Shown piece by piece: positions 1 to 24,736 of a stretch of 39,967 nt of DNA. Made by a program: the position numbers and the translations under genes. The DNA comes from Candidatus Tanganyikabacteria bacterium (GTDB taxonomy: Bacteria; Cyanobacteriota; Sericytochromatia; S15B-MN24; VGJW01): the NCBI GenBank assembly GCA_016867235.1, contig VGJY01000015.1, positions 1 to 39,967 on the forward strand, in the 5' to 3' direction. How positions within the stretch are numbered: position 1 is the stretch's first letter; each line of letters starts with the position of its first letter. A model generated the notes under the pieces. That model was not told the origin of the DNA, ran no database searches, and saw nothing but the letters and a program-made list of their open reading frames with translations.

Positions 1-174
1 GGCCCGGCCGCGACGCCCCACGTTGGCCCGGCCGCGCCGTCCCAGCCCCCGAGCCCCCGCCCGGCCGAACCACGGCCTGCCGTACCGCCCGAAGCGCCCC
101 GCGTCTACGACGCCGGCGATCCGGTGGGCCTGGCCAAGGACATCTTCCTGGGCAAGGTCATCGACGATCGCTGA
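1..174 (+). CDS. C-terminal end of an unidentified protein (5' end outside window)
   Basis: Frame 1 is open from the window edge to a TGA at 172-174 and encodes 57 residues. The first part is a proline/alanine-rich linker. It is followed by a compact tail reading VYDAGDPVGLAKDIFLGKV then IDDR, which looks like a conserved C-terminus rather than random translation. The next gene, mltG, starts 16 nt downstream on the same strand, so the two probably share an operon. In many bacteria the gene before mltG is a small DUF1292/DUF3727-type protein, but too little is visible here to assign it. The call as coding rests on the open frame, the codon pattern and the spacing to mltG. Confidence 0.55.
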   Translation, partial: GPAATPHVGPAAPSQPPSPRPAEPRPAVPPEAPRVYDAGDPVGLAKDIFLGKVIDDR

Positions 175-190
175 CCCGTACGCCGTTGCC

Positions 191-1216
191 GTGAAACGCG
201 ACTTACCTTTCATCCTTGCGGCGTTCCTGGCCGCCTTCTTCCTCGCGACCGGCGGCTTCATGCTTGCCGCCGACATGCTGTCGGCGCCCGACCCGTCCGA
301 CGGCCGCCCCCAGGCGTTCGAGGTCGCCCGCGGCGAGAGCTTCCGCCAGGTGGCGGCAAAGCTGGAGGCGGAGGGGTTCATCCGCAATGCCGCGGCATTC
401 CGCTTGCTGGGCGAGGTGCGCGGCGCCGGCCGCAAGATCAAGGCCGGGTTCTACTCGCTTAGCCGCACGCTGGCCGCCGCCGACGTCCTCACGGTCCTCA
501 CGGCGTCCGGCGGCGACCAGGTGAGAGTGACCATCCCCGAGGGCTGGGAGTTGCGGCAAATAGCGGCCGGCCTGGCGCGCAAGGGCGTGGCCGGCGCCGA
601 CGAATTCCTCGCGGCCGCGACCGATCCCGCGCCGTATCAATCGCGCTTCGCCTGGCTGGCCCTGTTGCCGGCGGGCGCGACCCTCGAGGGTTTCCTGTTC
701 CCGGATACCTACATGGTCGCGGCAGGCATGCCGGTGCGCAGCCTGATCGAGATGATGCTGGCCCGCTTCGAGCAGGTGGCCTGGGCCGAGATCAAGGATC
801 GTGCGGAGCCGCTGCCGCCCTTCGAGAGCGTCGTGCTGGCCTCCATCGTCGAGCGCGAGGCCGCCCGCGCCCAGGAACGGCCGCTGATCGCCGGCATCTA
901 CCTCAATCGCCTGCGGCTGGGCATGAAGCTCGGCGCGGATCCCACGGTCGAGTACGCCCTGGGCCGCCGGCAAGATGCCGAGCACAACCTCACTTACGCC
1001 GACATCGCCATCGAATCCCCCTACAACACCTACAAGCACAAGGGGTTGCCGCCGGGGCCCATCGCCAACCCCGGCCTGGCGTCCCTGCGCGCCGTGCTGC
1101 GCCCGGAACGCACCGAGTACCTCTACTTCGTGGCGCGCGGCGACGGCTCGCACGAATTCTCACGCTCCTATCGCGAGCAGATAGCGGCCCAGCGGCGGTT
1201 CCAGCGGCACCGATGA
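191..1216 (+). CDS. mltG: Endolytic murein transglycosylase MltG (YceG family)
   Basis: MltG is an inner-membrane lytic transglycosylase that cleaves nascent glycan strands and sets their length. I start it at GTG 191, giving 341 aa. This places the single membrane anchor (about residues 5-27, hydrophobic from LPFILAAFLAAFF onward) at the N-terminus, whereas the longer open frame from 23 adds only an arginine/proline-rich stretch. A small LysM-like region (about 45-110) precedes the YceG catalytic domain. The family motif ASIVERE places the catalytic glutamate at about E221, close to E218 of the E. coli enzyme. Other family blocks are DPTVEYALG and SPYNTYKHKGLPPGPIANPG. Length is normal. No Shine-Dalgarno is obvious at 191. 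The gene ends 124 nt before the acetyltransferase frame becomes recognisable. Confidence 0.93.
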   Translation: MKRDLPFILAAFLAAFFLATGGFMLAADMLSAPDPSDGRPQAFEVARGESFRQVAAKLEAEGFIRNAAAFRLLGEVRGAGRKIKAGFYSLSRTLAAADVLTVLTASGGDQVRVTIPEGWELRQIAAGLARKGVAGADEFLAAATDPAPYQSRFAWLALLPAGATLEGFLFPDTYMVAAGMPVRSLIEMMLARFEQVAWAEIKDRAEPLPPFESVVLASIVEREAARAQERPLIAGIYLNRLRLGMKLGADPTVEYALGRRQDAEHNLTYADIAIESPYNTYKHKGLPPGPIANPGLASLRAVLRPERTEYLYFVARGDGSHEFSRSYREQIAAQRRFQRHR

Positions 1217-1268
1217 GCTACTCACCGGCTGCTTCGACACCAGTGCACGAGCCCGGCGCCGGGCAGGG

Positions 1269-1859
1269 ATGCCCGGCGGATCGTCACGGACGGCACTGCG
1301 GGGGGGCTCGGGGGGGCGGCCCCCCCCCGAGGAGGCTCTAATCACCCACTTCGAACTCTCGCTTTCCCGGGTGCGGCCGTGGCGCCTGGCCGACAAGCCC
1401 GCGTTGCTGCGCTACGCCGACAACCCCCGGGTCTCGCGCGCCCTTGCCGACCGCTTCCCCTACCCGTACACGCCCGCCGACGCCGACATGTGGCTCGGCA
1501 TGGCCAGCGCCGAAGATCCCGTCTGCAACTTCGCCATCGAGGTGGGCGGCGAGGCGATCGGCGGCATCGGCGTCGAGGTCCTCGAAGCGGAGCGCCGCGC
1601 CGGGGCGGAGATCGGCTACTGGCTGGGCGAGCCGTTCTGGGGCCGCGGCATCGCCAGCGAGGCCCTGGTCGCGGTGGCGGGCTATGCGTTCGAGAGGTTC
1701 GACATCGTCAGGCTGCAGGCCGGCGTCTACTCCAGCAACCCGGCGTCGGCGCGGGTCCTGGAGAAGGCGGGGTTCGTGCGGGAGGCCACCATGCGCTGGG
1801 CCATCATCAAGCGCGGCGAGATACACGATCTGTGGATGTACGCCAGGCTCAGGCCTTGA
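1269..1859 (+). CDS. GNAT family N-acetyltransferase (RimJ/RimL-like)
   Basis: Acetyl-CoA-dependent N-acetyltransferase; substrate unknown. The RimJ/RimL-type sequence begins at ITHFELSLSRVRPWRLADK (codon 1341), followed by a FPYPYTPADADMWL segment and the acetyl-CoA-binding loop GEPFWGRGIASEAL. The end NPASARVLEKAGFVREATMR is the usual GNAT C-terminal signature. Upstream of 1341 the only ATG in frame is at 1269, and the codons between translate the G/C hairpin into a glycine/proline stretch that does not look like protein. A good GGAGG lies at 1331-1335, five bases before ATC 1341, so a rare ATC start or a homopolymer length error are both possible. The 3' end overlaps the convergent dehydrogenase gene by 11 nt. 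Confidence 0.85.
   Translation: MPGGSSRTALRGGSGGRPPPEEALITHFELSLSRVRPWRLADKPALLRYADNPRVSRALADRFPYPYTPADADMWLGMASAEDPVCNFAIEVGGEAIGGIGVEVLEAERRAGAEIGYWLGEPFWGRGIASEALVAVAGYAFERFDIVRLQAGVYSSNPASARVLEKAGFVREATMRWAIIKRGEIHDLWMYARLRP
1307..1331. other. G/C-tract hairpin in the acetyltransferase leader
   Basis: CTC followed by seven G pairs with seven C followed by GAG: a perfect 10-bp all-strong stem (1307-1316 with 1322-1331) around a 5-nt loop. A further run of seven G precedes it (1300-1306). The 3' arm runs into GAGGAGG, the likely ribosome-binding site of the next gene, so the hairpin could mask it. It could also be a terminator-like structure for mltG, although no T tract follows. The long homopolymers are also places where read counts may be wrong. 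Confidence 0.6.
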
Positions 1860-3066
1860 AGGTCCAGCCCGCAACCTCGGCGCTCGTGACGCGCATCTTG
1901 CGGAGGCGCAACCGGTCGAAGAAAGGCTTCACCGGCACGCAGGCCTCGGGCGGGCAGACGCCGGTAGCGTTTATCTCCCCGGCTCCCAGCATCTGGACCG
2001 CCACGGCGGGCGGCGAGCCGGTGTCGACCTCCAGCCCGATGCCCCAGGCGGGCATGCCCGTGACGTGCAGGTCCTCGACCAGCGTGACCTTCTTGCCCTT
2101 GCGAGTGCCTTTCACGATGGCCCGCACGACCTCATGCTGGATGCGGCGCCCCTTGGGGACGGGCGCCGGGTGGCTCATGACGACGCGGTTGACCAGTTCG
2201 ATCGGCGCGACGCGCGAGCCGTCCGGAAAGTCGATCTTCTCGGCCGAAGCCAGGCCGAGATCGCGCAGGAAGCAGATCCGGTCGATGAACTCGGGATCGA
2301 ATGCGATCTTGAACGTGCACTCCCGGATGCCCTTGTTCGCGAAGGACAAAGGCAACGTCGCCACCTCCGAATGGAGCGTGTGCATCGGGCGCTGCAGGCC
2401 GACCGGATCCGGGAAGCGGTGGGCCCGGAGGCCGCTCATCGGCGGCACGAAGGTGAACTCGCCGTTCGTGAAGACCGCCGGTTCGAGCGAGAATTCCTCG
2501 AGAATGGTCTGGAGGGAGTAGCCCGCGTCCAGGGGCGTGCGGGTCGCGTACTCGGTCTTGTCCACCGAGGCGACCCGCGTGTGTATCTCCTGCACGGTGT
2601 CCAGGCGGTCGGCGGCCTTGCGGGCCAGGATGTTGGTCACGCCCGGCGCCGCCCCCATGCCGAGCAATGCGAGGCGGCCCGCCTTCTTGAAGCGTCCATC
2701 CAGGCCCAGTTGCTTGCGCGTGACGTGGAAGAGGCCGCCCAGATCGACGTAGTGCGCACCCAGATCGAGCGCCAGTTCCATCGCGTCGAGGTTGAGGTGG
2801 TGGCTGGTCGAGTTGATCAGCGCGAAGGCGGGCCCCAGGGCCTTGATCGCGGGCTTGCGGTCCTTGACGTCCACCCGCACGGCCTGGAGACGGGGATCGT
2901 CGAAAGATGCGACCAGGGCCTTCGCGCGGTCGAGCGACCAGTCGGCAACCTGGATCCGCCAGCTCTCGTCGCGCGGCAAGGTCTCGACCAGATCGCGCAC
3001 GGTGACGCGCCCCATGGCGCCCGCGCCGCCCAGGACTACGACGCTCCTCGCTTCGGTCCGTCCCAA
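1849..3066 (-). CDS. Saccharopine dehydrogenase family protein (Lys9-like, NADP-binding)
   Basis: An oxidoreductase of the COG1748/Lys9 group, 405 aa. The N-terminal Rossmann motif VVVLGGAGAMGRVTVRDL binds NAD(P). It is followed by a segment with INSTSHHLNLDAMELAL and GAHYVDLGG, and by the family block LLGMGAAPGVTNILA. The start is TTG 3066: it lies 2 nt after the stop of the upstream aldehyde dehydrogenase, has GGAG about 8 nt before it, and puts the Rossmann fold near residue 10. The same frame stays open far upstream, but there it is only a shadow of that dehydrogenase. Close relatives include saccharopine dehydrogenase (saccharopine to glutamate plus aminoadipate semialdehyde) and carboxynorspermidine synthase. 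The adjacent aldehyde dehydrogenase makes a lysine/aminoadipate role attractive, but this is inference. Confidence 0.87.
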   Translation of the reverse strand: MGRTEARSVVVLGGAGAMGRVTVRDLVETLPRDESWRIQVADWSLDRAKALVASFDDPRLQAVRVDVKDRKPAIKALGPAFALINSTSHHLNLDAMELALDLGAHYVDLGGLFHVTRKQLGLDGRFKKAGRLALLGMGAAPGVTNILARKAADRLDTVQEIHTRVASVDKTEYATRTPLDAGYSLQTILEEFSLEPAVFTNGEFTFVPPMSGLRAHRFPDPVGLQRPMHTLHSEVATLPLSFANKGIRECTFKIAFDPEFIDRICFLRDLGLASAEKIDFPDGSRVAPIELVNRVVMSHPAPVPKGRRIQHEVVRAIVKGTRKGKKVTLVEDLHVTGMPAWGIGLEVDTGSPPAVAVQMLGAGEINATGVCPPEACVPVKPFFDRLRLRKMRVTSAEVAGWTFKA

Positions 3067-3068
3067 GG

Positions 3069-4547
3069 CTACGAGCTCCGCGCCGCGTTGGGGAACCAGT
3101 AGCTCTTTCTTTCCATGCGATAGTCGATATGGACGTGCTTGGGTTCGCGGAAGGCGTCGAGGCCCTCCTCGCCCAACTCCCGCCCGATGCCGCTGTGGCG
3201 CATTCCCCCGAAGGGGGCCGCGTCGTTGTCCGAGAGCGGATCGTTGACCCAGAAGGTCCCGGCCTTGATGTTCTCCATCGCCTCGAGGGCCAGATCCAGC
3301 CGGTTGGTGTAGATGCAGGCGCCAAGGCCGTACTCCGAGTCGTTGGCGCATTCGATGGCCTGGGCGTTGTCTTCCACGACCGTGATCGCCAGGACCGGCC
3401 CGAATAGCTCTTCGCGCGTCGGCAGCGAGCCGTGCGGGACGTCGGCCAGGATCGTGGGTTCGAAGAAGTGCCCCGGCAGGCCTCCCGGCTGGATGCGCTT
3501 CCCGCCGAGCACCAAGCGCGCGCCTTGCTCGATGCTCTCGGCGACCTGGTTTTCGAGCTTCTCGAGGGCCTCGCGGGTAATCAGCGGCCCGATGTCGGTG
3601 CGTGGATCCATGGGGTCTCCCACGATCAGCGTCTTGACGTGGTCCACCATGCGCCGGAGGAACTCCTCGGCGATGCTCCGCGGCACGTAGATGCGCTTGC
3701 TGGACGTGCAGACCTGCCCCGCATTGAGCAGGCGCGCCCAGGCGACGCCGGGCACCGCCACGTCGAGATCGGCGTCGTCGAAGACGATGAACGGATCGAC
3801 GCCGCCCAGTTCCAGGTTGACTTTCTTGAGTTCGGCACCCGCGAGCGCCGCTATCTTGCGGCCGGTCGCGGTGGAACCGGTGAACGCGATGCAGTCCACC
3901 TCCTTGTGCCGCACCAGGGCATCGCCGGTCTCCGCCGCGCCCGTCAGGAGGTTGACGACGCCGGGCGGCAAGCCTTCGAGCGATTCGAAGAGGCGGAGGG
4001 TCGACAGCGGGTTCTGGTGCGGCGCCTTGCAGACGACCGCGTTGCCCGCCGCGAGCGCGGGGGCGACCTTCCAGGCCATCAGCAGCAAGGGGAAGTTGAA
4101 CGGGGCGATGGCGGCGACCACCCCGAAGGGCTCCTTGACCGTGAAGTTGACCTGGTGGGGCGCCACGGGCGGGACCGAGTTGCCGAAGCTCCGGCGCGCC
4201 ACCTCCCCGTAGTAGTCGAAGCAAGCGGCGACCCAGTCGATGCAGTCGCGCGCCTCGCAATGCGGCTTGCCCGTCTCTTGCGAGAGCAACTTCGCCAGTT
4301 CGTGCTCGTCGGCGCGCAGCCGGGCGGCGGCCTCCCGCAGGAGCACGGCCTTCTCGACCCCCGGAACTCGCCACCAGCCGCGTTGCGCCCGCCGCGCCGC
4401 GGTCACCGCCCGGTCGACGTCCGCCGCGTTGCACATGGCGGCCTCGCCCAGCTTGGCCAGGGTCGCCGGATTCTCGATCGTGAGCCGCCCGGACGCCTCC
4501 GCGGACACCCACTCGCCATTGATGTAGATCGAAGCCGAATCGCGCAT
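3069..4547 (-). CDS. NAD(P)-dependent aldehyde dehydrogenase
   Basis: Oxidises an aldehyde to the carboxylate with NAD(P). Counting from ATG 4547 (492 aa), the key residues are Asn151 in PFNFP (oxyanion), Glu246 in LELGG (general base) and the nucleophile Cys280 in NAGQVCTSS. The usual GGKNP after the glutamate reads GGVDP, which marks a subgroup apart from betaine aldehyde dehydrogenases; succinate- or aminoadipate-semialdehyde-type enzymes are plausible. ATG 4547 is preferred over ATG 4565 because it begins MRDSASIYINGEW, a typical ALDH start, and lies 6 nt after a TACAAT box, fitting a leaderless message. The saccharopine-dehydrogenase-like gene follows after 2 nt, so the two are almost certainly co-transcribed. 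Confidence 0.92.
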   Translation of the reverse strand: MRDSASIYINGEWVSAEASGRLTIENPATLAKLGEAAMCNAADVDRAVTAARRAQRGWWRVPGVEKAVLLREAAARLRADEHELAKLLSQETGKPHCEARDCIDWVAACFDYYGEVARRSFGNSVPPVAPHQVNFTVKEPFGVVAAIAPFNFPLLLMAWKVAPALAAGNAVVCKAPHQNPLSTLRLFESLEGLPPGVVNLLTGAAETGDALVRHKEVDCIAFTGSTATGRKIAALAGAELKKVNLELGGVDPFIVFDDADLDVAVPGVAWARLLNAGQVCTSSKRIYVPRSIAEEFLRRMVDHVKTLIVGDPMDPRTDIGPLITREALEKLENQVAESIEQGARLVLGGKRIQPGGLPGHFFEPTILADVPHGSLPTREELFGPVLAITVVEDNAQAIECANDSEYGLGACIYTNRLDLALEAMENIKAGTFWVNDPLSDNDAAPFGGMRHSGIGRELGEEGLDAFREPKHVHIDYRMERKSYWFPNAARSS

Positions 4548-17634: not shown

Positions 17635-17934
17635 ATGAACCAAGAGAGCATCACGCCGGCGGCCATCGAACGCGCGGGGGTCGCCGACGTGCGGATCCGC
17701 TGGCGGGACGGCCACGAGAGCCTCTACCCCGCACGCGCCCTGCGCCTGCGGTGCCCGTGCGCATCGTGCGTGGAGGAAATGACCGGCCGGCCCCTGCTCG
17801 ATCCGGCCACCGTCCCGGAAGACGTGCATCCCGAGGCCATCGGCCTGGTCGGCCGCTACGCCATCAGTATCAGGTGGAGCGACGGCCATTCCACGGGGAT
17901 CTATACGTTCAAGCTGCTGCGGGACCTGGGCTAG
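17635..17934 (+). CDS. DUF971 (gamma-butyrobetaine hydroxylase-like N-terminal domain) protein
   Basis: A 99-aa stand-alone DUF971 protein. The family pattern is clear: VRIRWRDGHESLYPARALRL, then RCPCASCVEEMTGRPLLDP with Cys40, Cys42 and Cys45, and the end YAISIRWSDGHSTGIYTFKL. The cysteines probably bind metal. DUF971 occurs fused to Mrp in plant HCF101 and to oxygenases elsewhere, and is linked to Fe-S protein maturation. Here it is divergent from mrp over a shared 41-bp promoter region. The TAG stop lies in a CTAG palindrome that also provides the stop of the convergent gene (4-nt overlap). Confidence 0.9.
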   Translation: MNQESITPAAIERAGVADVRIRWRDGHESLYPARALRLRCPCASCVEEMTGRPLLDPATVPEDVHPEAIGLVGRYAISIRWSDGHSTGIYTFKLLRDLG

Positions 17935-19418
17935 GCTTTCATCTCCTCGACCTTGGCATCCGCGCCGATGGTGCGAAAGCGCTCGGCGAGGGATTCGGCC
18001 TCGGCCTGCGGCAGGTTGCGCTTGGCCACCGCCGGCACCTTCTGGAGCACCACCCGCACCTTCTCGACCGGGATGTTGAACAGGGCGGCCATCTGCTTGG
18101 CGACCGCTTCGCGTTCGGACTCGGTACGCCCGGCGCTGTTCAGGACCACCTGGTAGCGCTGGGCGGGAGCGGCCTGGTGCGCCTCTGCCAGTGCCTCGGC
18201 GGGCGACGTGACGGGCGCGGGCGGCGGAGGAGGAGGAGCCTCGCCCTTCTTGACCGCCTTGCCGCGGCAATCCTTGGTGGTGCAGCCGAAATTGGCTTTC
18301 CAGCAGCCTTCGTGGTGCTCGGCCGCGCAGACCGAGCAGACCACCGTGGGATCCTTGAGCGAAAACTTGCAGTAAGGGCACGGCCTGGCTTCCGACACGT
18401 CGCGCATCACCGTGGTCAAGGTCAGCGCGGGATCGGGCGCATCGCCCATCGAGGCCCGCTTCGCCGCCTCGATGGCATCCTGCGAGACCTCCTGCAGGCC
18501 GCCGCGGAGGCCGCTCATCGTGGCGGTCGGGAGGCGGCCGGAGACGGTGGGCGGCCGCTTGGGGACGGAACCCCGGGCTTGACCCGGGAGTGACCCGCCT
18601 GACACCAGGGCGCCGGTCGGCGGCCCGGCGGCATCGGCCCCGTCCCCGGCGTCCTCGCCGCGGCGGGCCGCCCGGTCTCGCTGGGCCTTGCGGATGGCGC
18701 CGTCCAGGATGTCCTTGAGGTGCTTGGCGTACTGCGGGTTTCCACCTTGGGCCCAGAACACCAGGGGCCTGGACTCGCCCGTATCCGCCGTGTAGTCGAT
18801 GACCAGGAAGCGCTGGTTCTTGCGGATGAACTGCTGGAGCTTGCCCAGGGCCGGGTTCTTGGAAGTCTTCGCCTCGGGCAGGTTGACGTCGGCCACCTTG
18901 CGCATCCGGACCTGCACGTGGGATTCCAGCGAAACCTTGGCGATGCGCGACATCGGCATGCGAATTCGGTTGCGAAGGTTCTTGAACACGACGGCGCGCT
19001 CGTAGACCTGGAGGCTGCCCCACTCGGGCTTGTCCACCTTGAGCGTGGGGTGGCCGCCGTAGTAGTTGAGCGAGAATTCGTCGAGGAGGCTGTTGGGCAG
19101 GGCGCCTCCCTTGTCCTTGGGATCGGTCTGCTCGACGATCTCGATCTGGCTAGCCATGTCGTAGATCTTGAGCGAGATCTTCTTCTCGACCTCGTCGTAG
19201 ATCTTCCGGAGCATCGTCGACGCGCCCGCGGCGATCAGCCCCACCACAAGGCCCGTGACGCCCAGTTCACCCCCGGAGAGCGAGAAGCCCGCATAGCCGA
19301 AGCCGACAGCGCCCGCGCCCATCAGGTACCGGGAGTACGGCCACTTCCTCGCGCGCAGCAGGAAGCGCTTCTTGTCTTCCTGGACGGTCTGCTTGAGCTT
19401 GTCCTTGCGGGGGGCCAT
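17931..19418 (-). CDS. Membrane protein with PH-like, prokaryotic RING-finger and L7/L12-like domains
   Basis: 495 aa. A basic N-terminus is followed by two hydrophobic segments (about 31-48 and 52-70). Residues ~110-245 look like a PH/GRAM-type beta domain (GSLQVYERAVVFKN, RIRMPMSRIAKVSLE, RFLVIDYTADTGESRPLVFW). After a linker comes a RING-like zinc module: Cys347, Cys350, Cys361, Cys364, His368/His369, Cys372, Cys379, Cys384 (CPYC, VVCSVC, EHHEGCW, FGC, KDC), the prokaryotic RING family pattern. A proline stretch (395-401) leads to residues 420-495, which resemble the ribosomal L7/L12 C-terminal domain, of ClpS-like fold (YQVVLNSAG; AEAESLAERFRTIGADAKVE). I infer a membrane-tethered adaptor or scaffold; enzymatic activity is unproven. 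It ends the glycan operon, 26 nt after the mutase gene. Confidence 0.8.
   Translation of the reverse strand: MAPRKDKLKQTVQEDKKRFLLRARKWPYSRYLMGAGAVGFGYAGFSLSGGELGVTGLVVGLIAAGASTMLRKIYDEVEKKISLKIYDMASQIEIVEQTDPKDKGGALPNSLLDEFSLNYYGGHPTLKVDKPEWGSLQVYERAVVFKNLRNRIRMPMSRIAKVSLESHVQVRMRKVADVNLPEAKTSKNPALGKLQQFIRKNQRFLVIDYTADTGESRPLVFWAQGGNPQYAKHLKDILDGAIRKAQRDRAARRGEDAGDGADAAGPPTGALVSGGSLPGQARGSVPKRPPTVSGRLPTATMSGLRGGLQEVSQDAIEAAKRASMGDAPDPALTLTTVMRDVSEARPCPYCKFSLKDPTVVCSVCAAEHHEGCWKANFGCTTKDCRGKAVKKGEAPPPPPPAPVTSPAEALAEAHQAAPAQRYQVVLNSAGRTESEREAVAKQMAALFNIPVEKVRVVLQKVPAVAKRNLPQAEAESLAERFRTIGADAKVEEMKA
18566..18596. repeat. REP-like palindrome inside a coding sequence
   Basis: CCCGGG-CTTGA-CCCGGG (18572-18588), flanked on the minus strand by GTCACTCCCGGG and GGGGTTCCG, has the form of widespread REP repeats of the GTCA-CCCGGG type. 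It sits in frame inside the linker of the RING protein and encodes GSLPGQARGSVP (about residues 275-286). Confidence 0.5.
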
Positions 19419-19427
19419 CGCCGGTCA

Positions 19428-19433
19428 ATTATA
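19428..19433 (-). promoter_or_regulatory. Consensus -10 box directly before the RING-protein gene
   Basis: A perfect TATAAT on the minus strand, nine bases before ATG 19418. No ribosome-binding site is visible. This predicts an internal promoter giving a leaderless or 1-3 nt leader message, independent of the upstream mutase operon. The -35 region lies in the end of that gene and is poor. Confidence 0.5.
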
Positions 19434-19444
19434 CCCGTGACAGC

Positions 19445-20869
19445 CTAGTGGCCCGCGGGCTGGGCGGAAACGTCGGCAACGAAGCCGTTGGCAGCCTTAT
19501 GCAACGCCTCCAGGCCCGCGTCGTCGGGCGCCTCCAGGTAGATGCGGATGATGGGCTCGGTCCCCGACGGCCGCGCGAGCAGCCAGCAGTCTCCTTCCAG
19601 GATGAGCTTCACGCCGTCGTCGGTGCGGGTATCCACCACCTTCCGGCCCGCGACCTCTCCGGGCGTCCGGCGGCGGAAGAAGTCCATGACCGCCTCCTTT
19701 GCCGCGGGCGAAAGATGCAGGTCGAGGCGCCGGCTCCGGGGCTCGAAACCTACCTCGGCCACCAGGTCGGCCCAGATGGCCGACAGGGGCTTGCCTTCCC
19801 GGGCGATCATCTCGGCGACCAGCAGATCGGCAAGCACGCCGTCCTTCTCGGGAACATGGCCCAGGACCGACAGCCCGCCGGACTCCTCGCCGCCTATCAG
19901 CACCGGTTCGGCCCGCATGACCGCGCCGACCCACTTGAAGCCCACCGGCGTCTCGCGCAGCGGCAGGCCGTAGCGGGCGGCGAGCCGATCGAGCAGGTGC
20001 GAGGTGGCCACCGTGCGCACGATGGCGCCGCTCATGCCGCGATTGCGGTGGAGGTGCCGGGCAAGCAAGGCGATGACCTGGTTCGGCACGTAGTAGCGGC
20101 CATCCTCGCCCACCACGCCGAAGCGGTCGGCATCTCCGTCGTTGGCGACCCCCAGCGCCATGCCCCCGCCGGTGACGGCGGCGGTGAGATCGGCCAGGAA
20201 GCGCGGCGCCGGTTCGGGCATGGCACCGCCGAAATAGGGATCCACGGACGCCCGCAAGGTCGCGACCGTGCAACCCGCCTGCCGCAGCAACTCGTCGGTG
20301 TATCCGCGGCCGGTGGCGTGCATGGCGTCGTAGGCCACCCGCAGCGCGGCTCCCCGCATGCGCTCGATATCCAGGTACCGGGCGATCGCCTCCCGGTACC
20401 GCGGGCCCGGATCGAAAGCGTCGCCATCCTCGGCTCCCCGGGTCAGCCCGGCTCCGTCGATCGTGCCGATCTCCGCGACGATGCGGTCGGTGATTTCCTT
20501 GGTCGCTGGCCCCGCGTAGTCGGGGATGTACTTGATGCCGCAGTACTGGGGCGGGTTATGGCTCGCCGTGATCATGACCGCGCCGCCGCTGGGCCGATCC
20601 TGCGCGGCATGCGCGATCACCGGCGTGGGAGCGTCCCTGTCGGCCAGCAGCGTAGGCAGGCCCTCGCCCCGCAGCACGGCGACCGCCGTGCGGGCAAAAT
20701 CGCGCGCCAGGAAGCGCGTGTCGTGCGCGACGATCACGGGGCGATCCGTGCCGTAGGTGGCCGCGACGTACCGGCCGATGGCGGCGCTGACGATGCGCAC
20801 GTTGTCGAACGTGAACCCCTCCGCGATGAGATCCCGCCAGCCGTCTGTGCCAAAGGTGATAGCTGCCAT
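19445..20869 (-). CDS. Phosphoglucomutase/phosphomannomutase family protein, active site intact
   Basis: A 474-aa alpha-D-phosphohexomutase interconverting sugar 1- and 6-phosphates. All four family loops are present: phosphoserine Ser103 in TASHNPPQYCG, metal site NDGDADRFG, sugar-binding GGEESGG and phosphate-binding RPSGTEPIIRIY. The start FGTDGWRDLI is standard. GGAGG lies 6 nt before ATG 20869, in the 12-nt gap after the nucleotidyltransferase/mutase-like fusion gene. Since that fusion has lost the mutase motifs, this enzyme probably supplies the hexose-1-phosphate. Glucose- versus mannose-phosphate preference cannot be told from sequence. Confidence 0.93.
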   Translation of the reverse strand: MAAITFGTDGWRDLIAEGFTFDNVRIVSAAIGRYVAATYGTDRPVIVAHDTRFLARDFARTAVAVLRGEGLPTLLADRDAPTPVIAHAAQDRPSGGAVMITASHNPPQYCGIKYIPDYAGPATKEITDRIVAEIGTIDGAGLTRGAEDGDAFDPGPRYREAIARYLDIERMRGAALRVAYDAMHATGRGYTDELLRQAGCTVATLRASVDPYFGGAMPEPAPRFLADLTAAVTGGGMALGVANDGDADRFGVVGEDGRYYVPNQVIALLARHLHRNRGMSGAIVRTVATSHLLDRLAARYGLPLRETPVGFKWVGAVMRAEPVLIGGEESGGLSVLGHVPEKDGVLADLLVAEMIAREGKPLSAIWADLVAEVGFEPRSRRLDLHLSPAAKEAVMDFFRRRTPGEVAGRKVVDTRTDDGVKLILEGDCWLLARPSGTEPIIRIYLEAPDDAGLEALHKAANGFVADVSAQPAGH

Positions 20870-20881
20870 CCGGTCCTCCGC

Positions 20882-23401
20882 CTAGCCTACCCGCGTCAAC
20901 GCGCCGGTCTCGCGCCCGGCCGCGAGCGCTTCGATGATACCGCGGTACTCCTGGAGCAGTTCTTCGGTCTCGATGATCGAGGTGCCGTCGGCGAACAGGT
21001 GGACGGTCGGTTCGACCGGATCGGGCAATGCCAGGACCCAGGCGTCTCCCGAGTAGATCTTGATGCCGTCCAGCAGATCCACCTTGCGGTCCCGGGTCTG
21101 CTCCACCAGCACGCGCATCACGGTGCCCTTCTGCTCCCACGGGCAAGGGATCTTCTCGTGGAAGTGGTAGAACTCGGGGATCTCCGAGCTGACATCGTCG
21201 AGGGACTTGCCGGTGATGCAAAGGGCCTCGGTGATCTTGGCGACCGCGATCATCGCGTCGAAGCCGGGGTGCAGGGCCGGCAGGATGAAGCGGCCTTCGG
21301 TACCCGCGAACACCACCTGGCGGTCCTTGGCGATCTCCATCAGCGCCCGGGCGTTGGCCTTGGTGCGGATGATCCGGCCCTCGTGCCGGGCGGCGATGCG
21401 CTCGAGCGCCGAGGATGCCGTCACCGGCACGCCGATGCTGCTGCCCGGCCTGGCCGCGAACGTGAGGTGCGCCACCGTCGCCAGCAACCGCTCGTCGAAG
21501 ATGATGCGGCCCTTGTTGTCCACGAGCGTGAGCCGCTCGCCATGCGCGTCGATCTGCACGCCGAACTCGGCCTTGAGCGCCGTGACGACGTGCGCGAGCT
21601 GGTTGCGCATCTCGCGCTTCTCTTCGGCGGTGGGGTAGCGCGGGAGCAGGTGGGCGTTGAGCACGACCGTGTCGGCTCCCAGCGAACCCAGCAAGGTCGG
21701 CAGGATGACGTTGACGAAGCTGCCGGCGTAGTCGATGACTATCTTGGGCTTGCGGGCCGCGATGACGTCCGAATCGAAGACCTTGAAGAACCCGCCCTTG
21801 TAGTGCTCGACCACGCGGCTCGGGAACTGGATGTCCCCGATGTCGCCCATTCGCACCCGCCGGAAATCCTCCTTGAAGAAGTTGGCCTCGATCTTCTTCT
21901 CGAGCGCCTTGGCGATGTTGAGGCCGTCCGAGTCGAGGAACTCGATCTGCATTTCGTCGGCCAAGTCGGGATGGATGCGCACGTGCAGGCCGCCGCGCAC
22001 GCTTAGCGTCGGGATCTGGTAGCGCGAGATCGGGATCGAGATGTTTTCCAGGTTGTGCACCGAGACGCCTACGCTCATCAGGCCCGAGATCAGCGCGCGA
22101 TTGATCATGCGGGCGGCCGGCGAGCCGTCGCGCGAGACCGTCACGTGGCTACCAGGCGGCAGCGAGGCGCCGTAGGCCGCGCCCAGGCGCACGGCGAATT
22201 CGGGCGAAACCTCGACGTTGACCAGGCCCTTGACGCCGCTGGTGCCGAAGAGCGTGCGCTGGGCAGCCGAGCCCCAGATCAGGCTGCTGGCGACCATCGC
22301 GCCCGTCTCGATGGTCTTGTTGGGCCAGACCTTCACGTTGGGCTTGATGATCGCCTTCTCGCCGACCACGCAGTCGTTGGCCACGATGGCGCCTTCGAGG
22401 ACCTCGCTGCCGCGCTTGACGCTGGTGTTCTTGGCCAGCACGCAGCCGCGCAACGCCACTTCCTCGCCGATGTAGACGTTGTTCCAGGTGACGGGCCGCT
22501 TCAAGGTGGAGTTGGCGCCGACCTGCACGTTGTCGCCGATGACCGATCCGGCCGAGACCACGGCGCCCGCCCCGATCTGGCAGTTGTTGCCGATGACGCT
22601 GGGCGCTTGCACGGTCGCCGTCGGGTGAATCTCCGTGCCCTCGCCGATCCAGATCCCCGGTTCGCGCTGGGGGTAGGGGATCTCGAGGCGGACCTTCCCC
22701 TCGAGGATGTCGTAATGAGCCTGCCGGTAGGACTGCAGGTTGCCGACATCCTCCCAGTAGCCGTCGGTGATGAAGCCGTACATCGGCTCGCCCTCGCGCA
22801 GCAGGGCGGGGAAGAGGTCCTTCGAGAAATCCAGTTCCTTCTCGGGCTCCAGGTACTCGAGGACTCGCGGTTCGAGGATGTACGTCCCCGTGTTGATCGT
22901 GTCCGAGAAGACCTCCGAGCTGGACGGCTTCTCGAGGAACCGCCGGATACGGCCCTGCTCGTCGATGATGACGACCCCGAACTCCAGCGGGTTGTCCACG
23001 CGCTTGAGCACCAGGGTGGCCACCGAGCCCTTGGCCTTGTGGTAGGCGATGGCCGCGCTGAGGTCCATGTCGGTCAGGGAGTCGCCCGAGATGACGATGA
23101 ACGTGTCGGTCAGCTGATCGGCCACCGCCTTGACCGATCCGGCGGTGCCCAGCGGCATCTTCTCCTCGACGGCGTAGTCTATTTTCACGCCGAAATCGGA
23201 GCCGTCGCCGAAGTAATTCTGGATGACGTGCGGCAGATAGTAGAGCGTCATCGTGATCTCGTCGAAACCGTGGTTTCGCAAGAGGTTGACGATATGCTCG
23301 GCCATCGGCCGGCTCAGCATCGGCGTCATGGGCTTGGGGAGATCGCACGTCAGGGGCCGCAGCCGGGTCCCCGACCCGCCGGCCATGAGAACTGCCTTCA
23401 T
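20882..23401 (-). CDS. Sugar nucleotidyltransferase / left-handed beta-helix / degenerate phosphomutase fusion
   Basis: An 839-aa protein. Residues 1-~235 are a nucleotidyltransferase (MKAVLMAGGSGTRLRPLTCD, with the lysine of LPKP, and ISGDSLTDMD). Residues ~250-370 are hexapeptide repeats of a left-handed beta-helix. From ~380 (LFGTSGVKGLVNVEVSPEF) the protein follows the phosphomannomutase fold, but the catalytic loop TASHNP reads VRIHPD (474-479), the metal site DGDADR reads DAHGER, and GEESGG reads GTEGRF. The mutase part is therefore expected to be inactive, perhaps regulatory. Such fusions are known in cyanobacteria and some other phyla as putative mannose-1-phosphate guanylyltransferases. 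It probably makes an NDP-hexose for the upstream glycosyltransferase. Gap to that gene is 57 nt. Confidence 0.9.
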   Translation of the reverse strand: MKAVLMAGGSGTRLRPLTCDLPKPMTPMLSRPMAEHIVNLLRNHGFDEITMTLYYLPHVIQNYFGDGSDFGVKIDYAVEEKMPLGTAGSVKAVADQLTDTFIVISGDSLTDMDLSAAIAYHKAKGSVATLVLKRVDNPLEFGVVIIDEQGRIRRFLEKPSSSEVFSDTINTGTYILEPRVLEYLEPEKELDFSKDLFPALLREGEPMYGFITDGYWEDVGNLQSYRQAHYDILEGKVRLEIPYPQREPGIWIGEGTEIHPTATVQAPSVIGNNCQIGAGAVVSAGSVIGDNVQVGANSTLKRPVTWNNVYIGEEVALRGCVLAKNTSVKRGSEVLEGAIVANDCVVGEKAIIKPNVKVWPNKTIETGAMVASSLIWGSAAQRTLFGTSGVKGLVNVEVSPEFAVRLGAAYGASLPPGSHVTVSRDGSPAARMINRALISGLMSVGVSVHNLENISIPISRYQIPTLSVRGGLHVRIHPDLADEMQIEFLDSDGLNIAKALEKKIEANFFKEDFRRVRMGDIGDIQFPSRVVEHYKGGFFKVFDSDVIAARKPKIVIDYAGSFVNVILPTLLGSLGADTVVLNAHLLPRYPTAEEKREMRNQLAHVVTALKAEFGVQIDAHGERLTLVDNKGRIIFDERLLATVAHLTFAARPGSSIGVPVTASSALERIAARHEGRIIRTKANARALMEIAKDRQVVFAGTEGRFILPALHPGFDAMIAVAKITEALCITGKSLDDVSSEIPEFYHFHEKIPCPWEQKGTVMRVLVEQTRDRKVDLLDGIKIYSGDAWVLALPDPVEPTVHLFADGTSIIETEELLQEYRGIIEALAAGRETGALTRVG

Positions 23402-23458: not shown

Positions 23459-24736
23459 CTACCGGCTCGGCGCCGGGAAGATCTGGGGCTTGTGGTTGCC
23501 CTCCGAAGCCGGGGTCTGGCTCGCAGGAACACTCGCCTCGCGCTCGGCCGGGACCTGATGTTGATCGCCCGCCACGAGGCGATAGACTCCCTCGGTCTGC
23601 TCGGCGATGCGATCCCAGTTGAAGACGCGCTCGACGCGCTCGAACGCGTTCTGCACCAGCCACTGGGCGTGATCCGGGCGCGAGAGCACCTGGAGGATGC
23701 CCCAGGCCAGCGACTGCACGTCGCCGGCGTAGGTCGTGACGCCCGTGACGTCGTGCTCGATGATCTCCCACAGGCCGCCGGCATCCGACGCCACGACCGG
23801 CACGCCCGCGGCCATACCCTCGAGGGCGACGATGCCGAAGGGCTCGTAGAGGGACGGCGCGACCGACACGTCCGCGACGCGGTACAGGCGCACGAGGGTG
23901 TCATCGTCCACGTAGCCCGTGAACAGGCACTTGTGGCCCAGGCGCAGCGCCGCCGCCCGCGCCTTGAGCTCGTCCACGAAGCCGCCCTTGCCCACGATGA
24001 CGAACTTGGCGTCGGGGTACTGGGCGATGATGTGCGACGCCGCCTCGAGCAGGAACTGGCCGCCCTTCTCGACCACCATCCGCCCGACGAACAGCACGAT
24101 CTTCTCGAAATCCAGCGCGAAGCGGCGCCGGAACGCCATCCGCTCCGGGAAGTCGAAGTGGAACTTCGTGGGATCGATGCCGTTGGGGATGACGTGTATC
24201 TTGTCTTGCGGCACGCCGAACTGGCCCTGCACCTCGTGGAACATCGTGCTGCTGCACACGACGACCTGGTAGGACTCGAAGGTGAGGTACCACTCCTGCT
24301 GCGCGATGTAGCGGCTCATGGCGTGGTGGATGCCCTTGTTGCGGCCCGCCTCGGTCGCGTGCACCGTACCGATGAGCGGCACGTCGACCGACTTCTTGAG
24401 CAGGTTGGCCGCCTGCACGACCAGCCAGTCGTGCGCGTGGAAGACGTCGAACGGCGCGATGCGCTGGGTCTGGAGCGCCATGCGCGCCAGGCCGAAGTTG
24501 AGGTGCAGCACCCACTCGACGAAGTCGCGCGTCGGCGCGGCGACCTCGCCGCCGCGGGCCCGGTGCAAGTGGACGCCCCCGACCACCTCGTGCTCGGCCG
24601 TGTCGGGATGGTCGGCCGTGAAGACGTGGACCTCGTGGCCCTTGCGGACCAGGGCCTGGGACAGTTCTTCCACGTGCCGGGCGATGCCGCCGACTATTCG
24701 CGGCGGGTATTCCCAGCTCAGCATTCCGATGCGCAT
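23459..24736 (-). CDS. Glycosyltransferase family 4 (GT-B, glycogen-synthase-like)
   Basis: A 425-aa retaining GT-B glycosyltransferase. The N-terminal acceptor domain begins MRIGMLSWEYPPRIVGGIAR, the glycogen/starch synthase-like glycine loop, with HAHDWLVVQAAN further on. The C-terminal donor domain has VLFVGRMVVEKGGQFLLEAA and the EPFGIVALEGMAAGVPVVA motif (Ex7E). The last ~35 residues are polar and disordered. The ATG lies one base after the stop of the DUF1537 gene. With the downstream NDP-sugar synthase and hexomutase it forms a compact glucan- or mannan-building set; the precise product (glycogen-like polymer, glucosylglycerate, exopolysaccharide) is not decidable here. Confidence 0.9.
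   Translation of the reverse strand: MRIGMLSWEYPPRIVGGIARHVEELSQALVRKGHEVHVFTADHPDTAEHEVVGGVHLHRARGGEVAAPTRDFVEWVLHLNFGLARMALQTQRIAPFDVFHAHDWLVVQAANLLKKSVDVPLIGTVHATEAGRNKGIHHAMSRYIAQQEWYLTFESYQVVVCSSTMFHEVQGQFGVPQDKIHVIPNGIDPTKFHFDFPERMAFRRRFALDFEKIVLFVGRMVVEKGGQFLLEAASHIIAQYPDAKFVIVGKGGFVDELKARAAALRLGHKCLFTGYVDDDTLVRLYRVADVSVAPSLYEPFGIVALEGMAAGVPVVASDAGGLWEIIEHDVTGVTTYAGDVQSLAWGILQVLSRPDHAQWLVQNAFERVERVFNWDRIAEQTEGVYRLVAGDQHQVPAEREASVPASQTPASEGNHKPQIFPAPSR

What the first reader, a model, noticed from the sequence alone, without database searches (positions are those of the whole stretch)
17931..19418. Membrane protein combining PH-like, prokaryotic RING and L7/L12-like (ClpS-fold) domains
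The zinc module has the full RING-like ligand set (Cys347/350/361/364, His368/369, Cys372/379/384) and the last 75 residues resemble the L7/L12 C-terminal domain, which has a ClpS-like fold. With two membrane segments and a PH-like domain this suggests a membrane-tethered adaptor or a ubiquitin-like/proteolysis scaffold. I know of prokaryotic RING families but not of this combination. It sits at the end of a glycan operon and has its own TATAAT.
Basis: partly seen in the sequence, partly recalled or inferred. Interest (0 to 1): 0.7.

Follow-up and report, generated by a model that had tools for sequence, protein, structure and literature searches.

The report
Membrane-anchored PH–zinc-finger–L12-like scaffold protein
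An uncultured relative of cyanobacteria makes a membrane-anchored protein that joins three known types of interaction domain in a combination we found nowhere else; its RING-like zinc finger appears only in the family of genomes that also carry a complete ubiquitin-like gene set, but whether the two work together is untested.

Summary
Residues 105-250 fold as a PH domain (pLDDT 87, Z up to 12.8). Residues 345-387 are a C4HC3 zinc module of the Prok-RING_1 type. Residues 421-492 are an L7/L12 C-terminal-like domain without the ribosomal factor-binding motif. A basic N-terminus and a weakly hydrophobic helical hairpin suggest a membrane anchor with all domains in the cytoplasm. Orthologues were found only in one order of Sericytochromatia, always behind the same sugar-phosphate/glycosyltransferase genes. 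The orthologue outside the window's family keeps anchor, PH and L12 but has no zinc finger, so the finger is a lineage-specific addition. I also found a complete E1-E2-Ubl-JAB-RING operon elsewhere in the genome; its E2 and RING are in all five family genomes and in none of 13 other class genomes. That parallels the finger's distribution, but it is one clade. The finger's nearest relatives sit on WD40 proteins in genomes without such an E2, and its second half is spaced differently from the operon's RINGs. Best reading: a membrane scaffold for the glycan enzymes; E3 activity is possible, not shown. New combination, known parts.

The parts
17931..19418 (-). Gene of the PH / Prok-RING_1 / L12-CTD-like protein, 495 aa
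19209..19328 (-). Helical hairpin, residues 31-70: two hydrophobic stretches (31-49 weak, 52-70 clear) behind a basic N-terminus; probable membrane anchor
   Evidence: hydropathy; helices 29-47 and 49-96 in the model, low confidence
18669..19106 (-). PH-fold domain, residues 105-250
   Evidence: model m020d8b879521 pLDDT 87, pTM 0.81; Foldseek E 1.7e-4; VIA Z 12.8, 774 of 998 chains Z>=8
18390..18647 (-). Disordered Pro/Gly/Ala-rich linker, residues 258-343
   Evidence: pLDDT 30-50 over most of it; relaxed dN/dS in the corresponding stretch of orthologues
18258..18386 (-). C4HC3 zinc module (Prok-RING_1 type), residues 345-387
17943..18158 (-). L7/L12 C-terminal-domain-like (ClpS-fold) domain, residues 421-492
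   Evidence: own ribosomal L12 for comparison
19428..19433 (-). TATAAT, 9 nt before the start codon; -10-like element recurring in related genomes
   Evidence: chance about 3e-4 for this 26-nt gap
19445..20869 (-). Upstream operon neighbour: phosphoglucomutase/phosphomannomutase family, 26 nt away
20882..23401 (-). Operon neighbour: sugar-nucleotidyltransferase (mannose-1-P guanylyltransferase-like) fused to a hexapeptide and a PGM/PMM domain
23459..24736 (-). Operon neighbour: GT4 glycosyltransferase

Best explanation
A cytoplasm-facing scaffold anchored in the inner membrane by an N-terminal hairpin. Its PH-fold domain and L12-CTD-like tail are the conserved working parts. They most likely hold the sugar-nucleotide/glycosyltransferase enzymes of the neighbouring genes at the membrane, or couple them to a partner. 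In the window's family a C4HC3 zinc finger sits between two flexible linkers as a further protein-binding module. Shown: gene, domains, conservation, operon constancy, restriction of the finger to one family. Inferred: membrane topology, zinc binding, partners, and the role in the glycan pathway.
For: Same-strand position directly behind the sugar-phosphate genes in all six loci where that side is assembled, gaps 26-103 nt, including a genome whose copy lacks the finger (G005). PH fold. L12-like tail that has lost the TGLGLKEAK factor-binding stretch of the genome's own L12, so not a translation-factor stalk. Long disordered linkers between compact domains. Published parallel: single-TM proteins with a zinc ribbon, or an HTH fused to an L12-ClpS domain, in the cytoplasmic region (PMC12419801).
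Against: No partner is shown. A gene may sit in an operon for expression reasons only, and this one appears to have its own promoter-like element. In G009 the phosphoglucomutase is not next to it. The membrane hairpin is weakly hydrophobic in the window protein.
Confidence: 0.5

Rival explanations
1. Membrane-bound E3: the RING-like finger recruits the genome's own E2~Ubl from the separate E1-E2-Ubl-JAB-RING operon and directs modification to membrane or glycan-enzyme substrates held by PH and L12 domains.
For: Complete operon at G000:C141 (L079): JAB 1-579, UQ_con E2 767-1306 over the cut-off, YukD-like Ubl 1310-1555, ThiF E1 1581-2699, two RING-like proteins. UQ_con E2 and the operon RING in 5 of 5 family genomes, 0 of 13 others. 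Finger present in the 4 intact family copies, absent in G005, not found anywhere in G009. C4HC3 is the layout reported for prokaryotic RINGs (PMC11354881).
Against: One clade, one event: Fisher p 0.067 even ignoring kinship. Nearest relatives of the finger are on WD40 proteins in G015/G017, which have no UQ_con E2. Six residues between ligands 6 and 7 and Cx4C at the end, against a longer stretch and CxxC in the operon RINGs. Gene not in the Ubl operon.
Confidence: 0.2
2. Sensor or regulator: zinc or redox state of the finger, or ligand binding by the PH domain, changes the protein's hold on a partner and so regulates glycan synthesis.
For: Cys-rich site on flexible linkers; own -10-like element.
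Against: No regulatory output domain; an orthologue without any cysteine keeps the operon position.
Confidence: 0.13
3. Proteolysis adaptor: the ClpS-fold tail delivers substrates to a Clp or FtsH machine at the membrane.
For: L12-CTD and ClpS share a fold (established knowledge); tail conserved.
Against: Sequence matches are to L7/L12, with no ClpS family match; no protease among the neighbours examined.
Confidence: 0.07

Closest known systems
Prok-RING_1 (PF14446) zinc fingers
   Same: Ligand spacing and HxxCW core; isolated module scores 29.4 bits against the 29.1 cut-off
   Different: Placed between a PH domain and an L12-like tail; short second half (x6, Cx4C)
Zinc-finger WD40 proteins of G015 and G017 (L020, L021)
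   Same: Closest finger found: hhalign E 2e-12, shared C-K-G after the last Cys
   Different: Finger at the N-terminus, WD40 propeller at the C-terminus; no PH or L12 part
TM proteins with a zinc ribbon, or an HTH fused to an L12-ClpS domain (lipocone paper, PMC12419801)
   Same: Membrane anchor, small cytoplasmic domains, L12-ClpS among them
   Different: Single TM, zinc ribbon or HTH rather than a C4HC3 finger, no PH domain described in the passage read
Bacterial PH-like domains (PHb; PMC2817789, abstract)
   Same: PH fold in a bacterial protein
   Different: No Pfam PH family hit for this domain; combined with other modules
Bacterial E1-E2-JAB-Ubl-RING operons (Burroughs, Iyer and Aravind 2011, from own knowledge; cited in PMC7159879)
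   Same: Such an operon is in the same genome
   Different: The window gene is not part of it

Membership tests
Prok-RING_1 / binuclear RING-like treble clef | Eight Cys/His ligands in four pairs | tested here: met
   C4HC3 in all 4 intact family copies
Prok-RING_1 / binuclear RING-like treble clef | Score above the Pfam gathering cut-off | tested here: inconclusive
   29.4 vs 29.1 as an isolated segment, 23.6 in the whole protein
Prok-RING_1 / binuclear RING-like treble clef | Binds two zinc ions with the cross-brace fold | not testable with these tools
   Model of this part has block pLDDT of about 58-80 and no metals
E3 ubiquitin-type ligase | E1, E2 and Ubl available in the genome | tested here: met
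   G000:C141 operon
E3 ubiquitin-type ligase | Encoded with, or restricted to genomes with, the E1/E2 set | tested here: inconclusive
   Same family of genomes, but one clade; same finger type in genomes without UQ_con E2
E3 ubiquitin-type ligase | Binds E2 and stimulates Ubl transfer | not testable with these tools
   Needs biochemistry
PH fold | Seven-stranded barrel capped by a C-terminal helix | tested here: met
   Seven strands, then a helix from 228; Z 12.8
PH fold | Phosphoinositide binding | not tested
   Not a requirement of the fold
L7/L12 C-terminal domain | Sequence and fold of the domain | tested here: met
   Family profile E 4e-5 to 7pao, b-a-a-b-a-b; the single-sequence Pfam score is below the cut-off
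Ribosomal protein L7/L12 | Factor-binding TGLGLKEAK stretch | tested here: not met
   FNIPVEKVR in its place; own L12 has TGLGLKEAK. So not a ribosomal L12
ClpS adaptor | ClpS family sequence match | tested here: not met
   No ClpS match in Pfam, NCBIfam or PDB sequences

The most novel reading that the evidence does not exclude
A bacterial lineage recruited its ubiquitin-like conjugation system to the membrane and to glycan synthesis by inserting a RING-type E3 module into a pre-existing PH-L12 membrane scaffold, giving a eukaryote-like membrane-anchored E3 encoded away from the E1-E2 operon.
Probability: 0.15. Interest if true: 0.78.

Novelty: new variant of a known kind. Interest (0 to 1): 0.42.

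Why it matters
Every part is known, but the combination was not found outside one order of Sericytochromatia. If the finger turned out to be an E3, it would be a membrane-anchored bacterial RING ligase acting in trans to its E1-E2 operon and placed in a glycan operon. Even without that, the family gives a before/after case (orthologue without and with the finger) for testing what a RING-like insertion adds.

Tried and rejected
Plasmid tblastn and the viral-contig scan found no relatives. PHROGs and PADLOC found nothing for the window protein. The genome-contig scan returned only the same six genomes; its single pattern limits its reach, so wider absence is not proven. Weak hits to glucose-1-phosphatase were judged chance. 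The PDB profile search with the zinc module gave only sub-threshold zinc proteins (eL43, C1 and PHD among them; E >= 0.02). VIA on the full model listed only the PH part, so it does not test the Zn or L12 folds. PF14461 (another prokaryotic E2 family) rang nowhere, controls included, so it is uninformative. Other L12 and Prok-RING hits in the own genome, outside the Ubl operon, are the ribosomal L12 or weak partial matches, at least one of them inside a DNA polymerase III-like ORF and one in a GspE/PilB-like ORF with zinc ribbons (names by eye). Burroughs 2011 and the 2024 Nature paper on bacterial ubiquitination were not held.

Full report
Observation. The ORF at 17931-19418 is on the minus strand, begins with ATG and encodes 495 residues. 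Its stop codon overlaps the end of a convergent GBBH-like_N (DUF971) gene at 17635-17934 by 4 bases. The genome holds one copy. Kinship by search and the titles of the related records (Candidatus Tanganyikabacteria, Sericytochromatia, Cyanobacteria bacterium UBA8530) place it in the Sericytochromatia.

Anatomy. Residues 1-30 are basic. Residues 31-70 form a probable helical hairpin whose second half is clearly hydrophobic and whose first half is weak. By the positive-inside rule both ends should be cytoplasmic (inference). Residues 105-250, predicted alone, give pLDDT 87 and pTM 0.81 with seven strands and a C-terminal helix in PH order. Foldseek and VIA match PH, PTB and FERM-F3 domains (best E 1.7e-4; Z 12.8, rmsd 2.6 over 102 residues; 774 of 998 chains at Z 8 or more). 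No Pfam PH family is hit. A disordered linker follows, then the zinc module at 345-387, a second linker, and an L7/L12-CTD-like domain at 421-492.

Zinc module. Ligands are C347, C350, C361, C364, H369, C372, C379, C384; H368 is not conserved. This is C4HC3, the arrangement a review reports for prokaryotic RINGs (PMC11354881). Taken alone the module just passes the Prok-RING_1 cut-off. Pfam's weaker matches to PHD, ZZ and C1 fingers show that sequence alone does not separate RING from other binuclear treble clefs.

L12-like tail. The family profile reaches solved L7/L12 at E 4e-5. The genome's ribosomal L12 keeps TGLGLKEAK, and the window tail reads FNIPVEKVR there. It is therefore the fold without the translation-factor surface (the role of that surface is from own knowledge).

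Relatives. Class-wide and phylum-wide searches found the gene in seven genomes, all in one order. Of the four other family genomes, G001, G004 and G002 have it full length and G003 has it cut by a contig end. G005, in another family of the order, has anchor, PH and L12 but no cysteine at all. G009 is split at two contig ends, and no matching finger was found anywhere in its assembly. The finger is thus an addition confined, on present data, to the window's family.

Context. In six loci the gene follows, on the same strand and 26-103 nt away, either the phosphoglucomutase (five loci) or the nucleotidyltransferase-PMM fusion (G009), with the GT4 glycosyltransferase further up. This holds with and without the finger. 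A TATAAT lies 9 nt before the start (chance about 3e-4 for that gap). The family genomes have GGGTA-like elements at about the same distance and G005 a TATATT somewhat further up, which would suit short-leader transcription (inference). A standard sigma-70 scan did not call it.

The ubiquitin question. A UQ_con E2 above cut-off is in all five family genomes and in none of the 13 others of the class. In the window's genome it lies in a compact operon at G000:C141: RING with a C-terminal OB-like part, RING, E1 (ThiF), YukD-like Ubl, E2, JAB. The same order, with one RING, is seen in G002. The operon RING is also confined to the family, while the E1 query finds only weaker ThiF/MoeB-type matches in the other genomes. 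So finger and operon have the same distribution. This is one clade, hence effectively one observation (Fisher p 0.067 without correction for kinship).

Against a direct link: the finger's nearest relatives are at the N-terminus of WD40 proteins in G015 and G017 (hhalign E 2e-12), genomes without UQ_con E2, whereas the match to the operon RINGs is only E 0.0017 over 19 columns. Its second half is short (six residues between ligands 6 and 7, then Cx4C), whereas the operon RINGs have longer spacing and CxxC, as E3 RINGs usually do (the E3 rule is from own knowledge). The orthologue without the finger keeps the same operon slot.

Verdict. A membrane scaffold with interchangeable interaction modules in a glycan operon is the best reading (0.5). 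A membrane-bound E3 is a live rival (0.2).

Noticed in passing
L079 (G000:C141) 1-3859, minus strand: Complete bacterial ubiquitin-like operon: two RING-like proteins (one with a C-terminal OB-like part), ThiF E1, YukD-like Ubl ending LLEAGA, UQ_con E2, JAB peptidase. Its E2, E1 and RING are in all five genomes of this family.
   Followed up: partly
L020 8760-10649 and L021 8269-9825, minus strand: Proteins with the same type of zinc finger at the N-terminus, recurring P-D/E-Y/F-I-P-D/E-Y/F-V segments and a C-terminal WD40 propeller, in another family of the class without UQ_con E2.
   Followed up: partly
window 19428-19433: -10-like element 9 nt before the start codon, with similar elements near the start in related genomes: possible short-leader or leaderless transcript inside an operon.
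   Followed up: partly
window 17635-17934: DUF971 gene on the opposite strand sits between this gene and Mrp and overlaps its end by 4 bases; in G001 and G002 Mrp follows with only 169 and 45 bases between.
   Followed up: no
L061 (G001:C81) and L062 (G004:C357): Another Prok-RING_1 protein of about 335 aa, above the Pfam cut-off, with a Pro-rich tail, in one genus only.
   Followed up: no
L023 10086-10373 (G009:C8): Fragment joining a piece of the PH domain to an L12-like piece: a possible decayed second copy or an assembly artefact.
   Followed up: no
L079 3859-5012 and L081 9137-11178: Membrane-protein-like and acetyltransferase-like ORFs directly upstream of the Ubl operon in two genera; no Pfam match for those in L079.
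   Followed up: no
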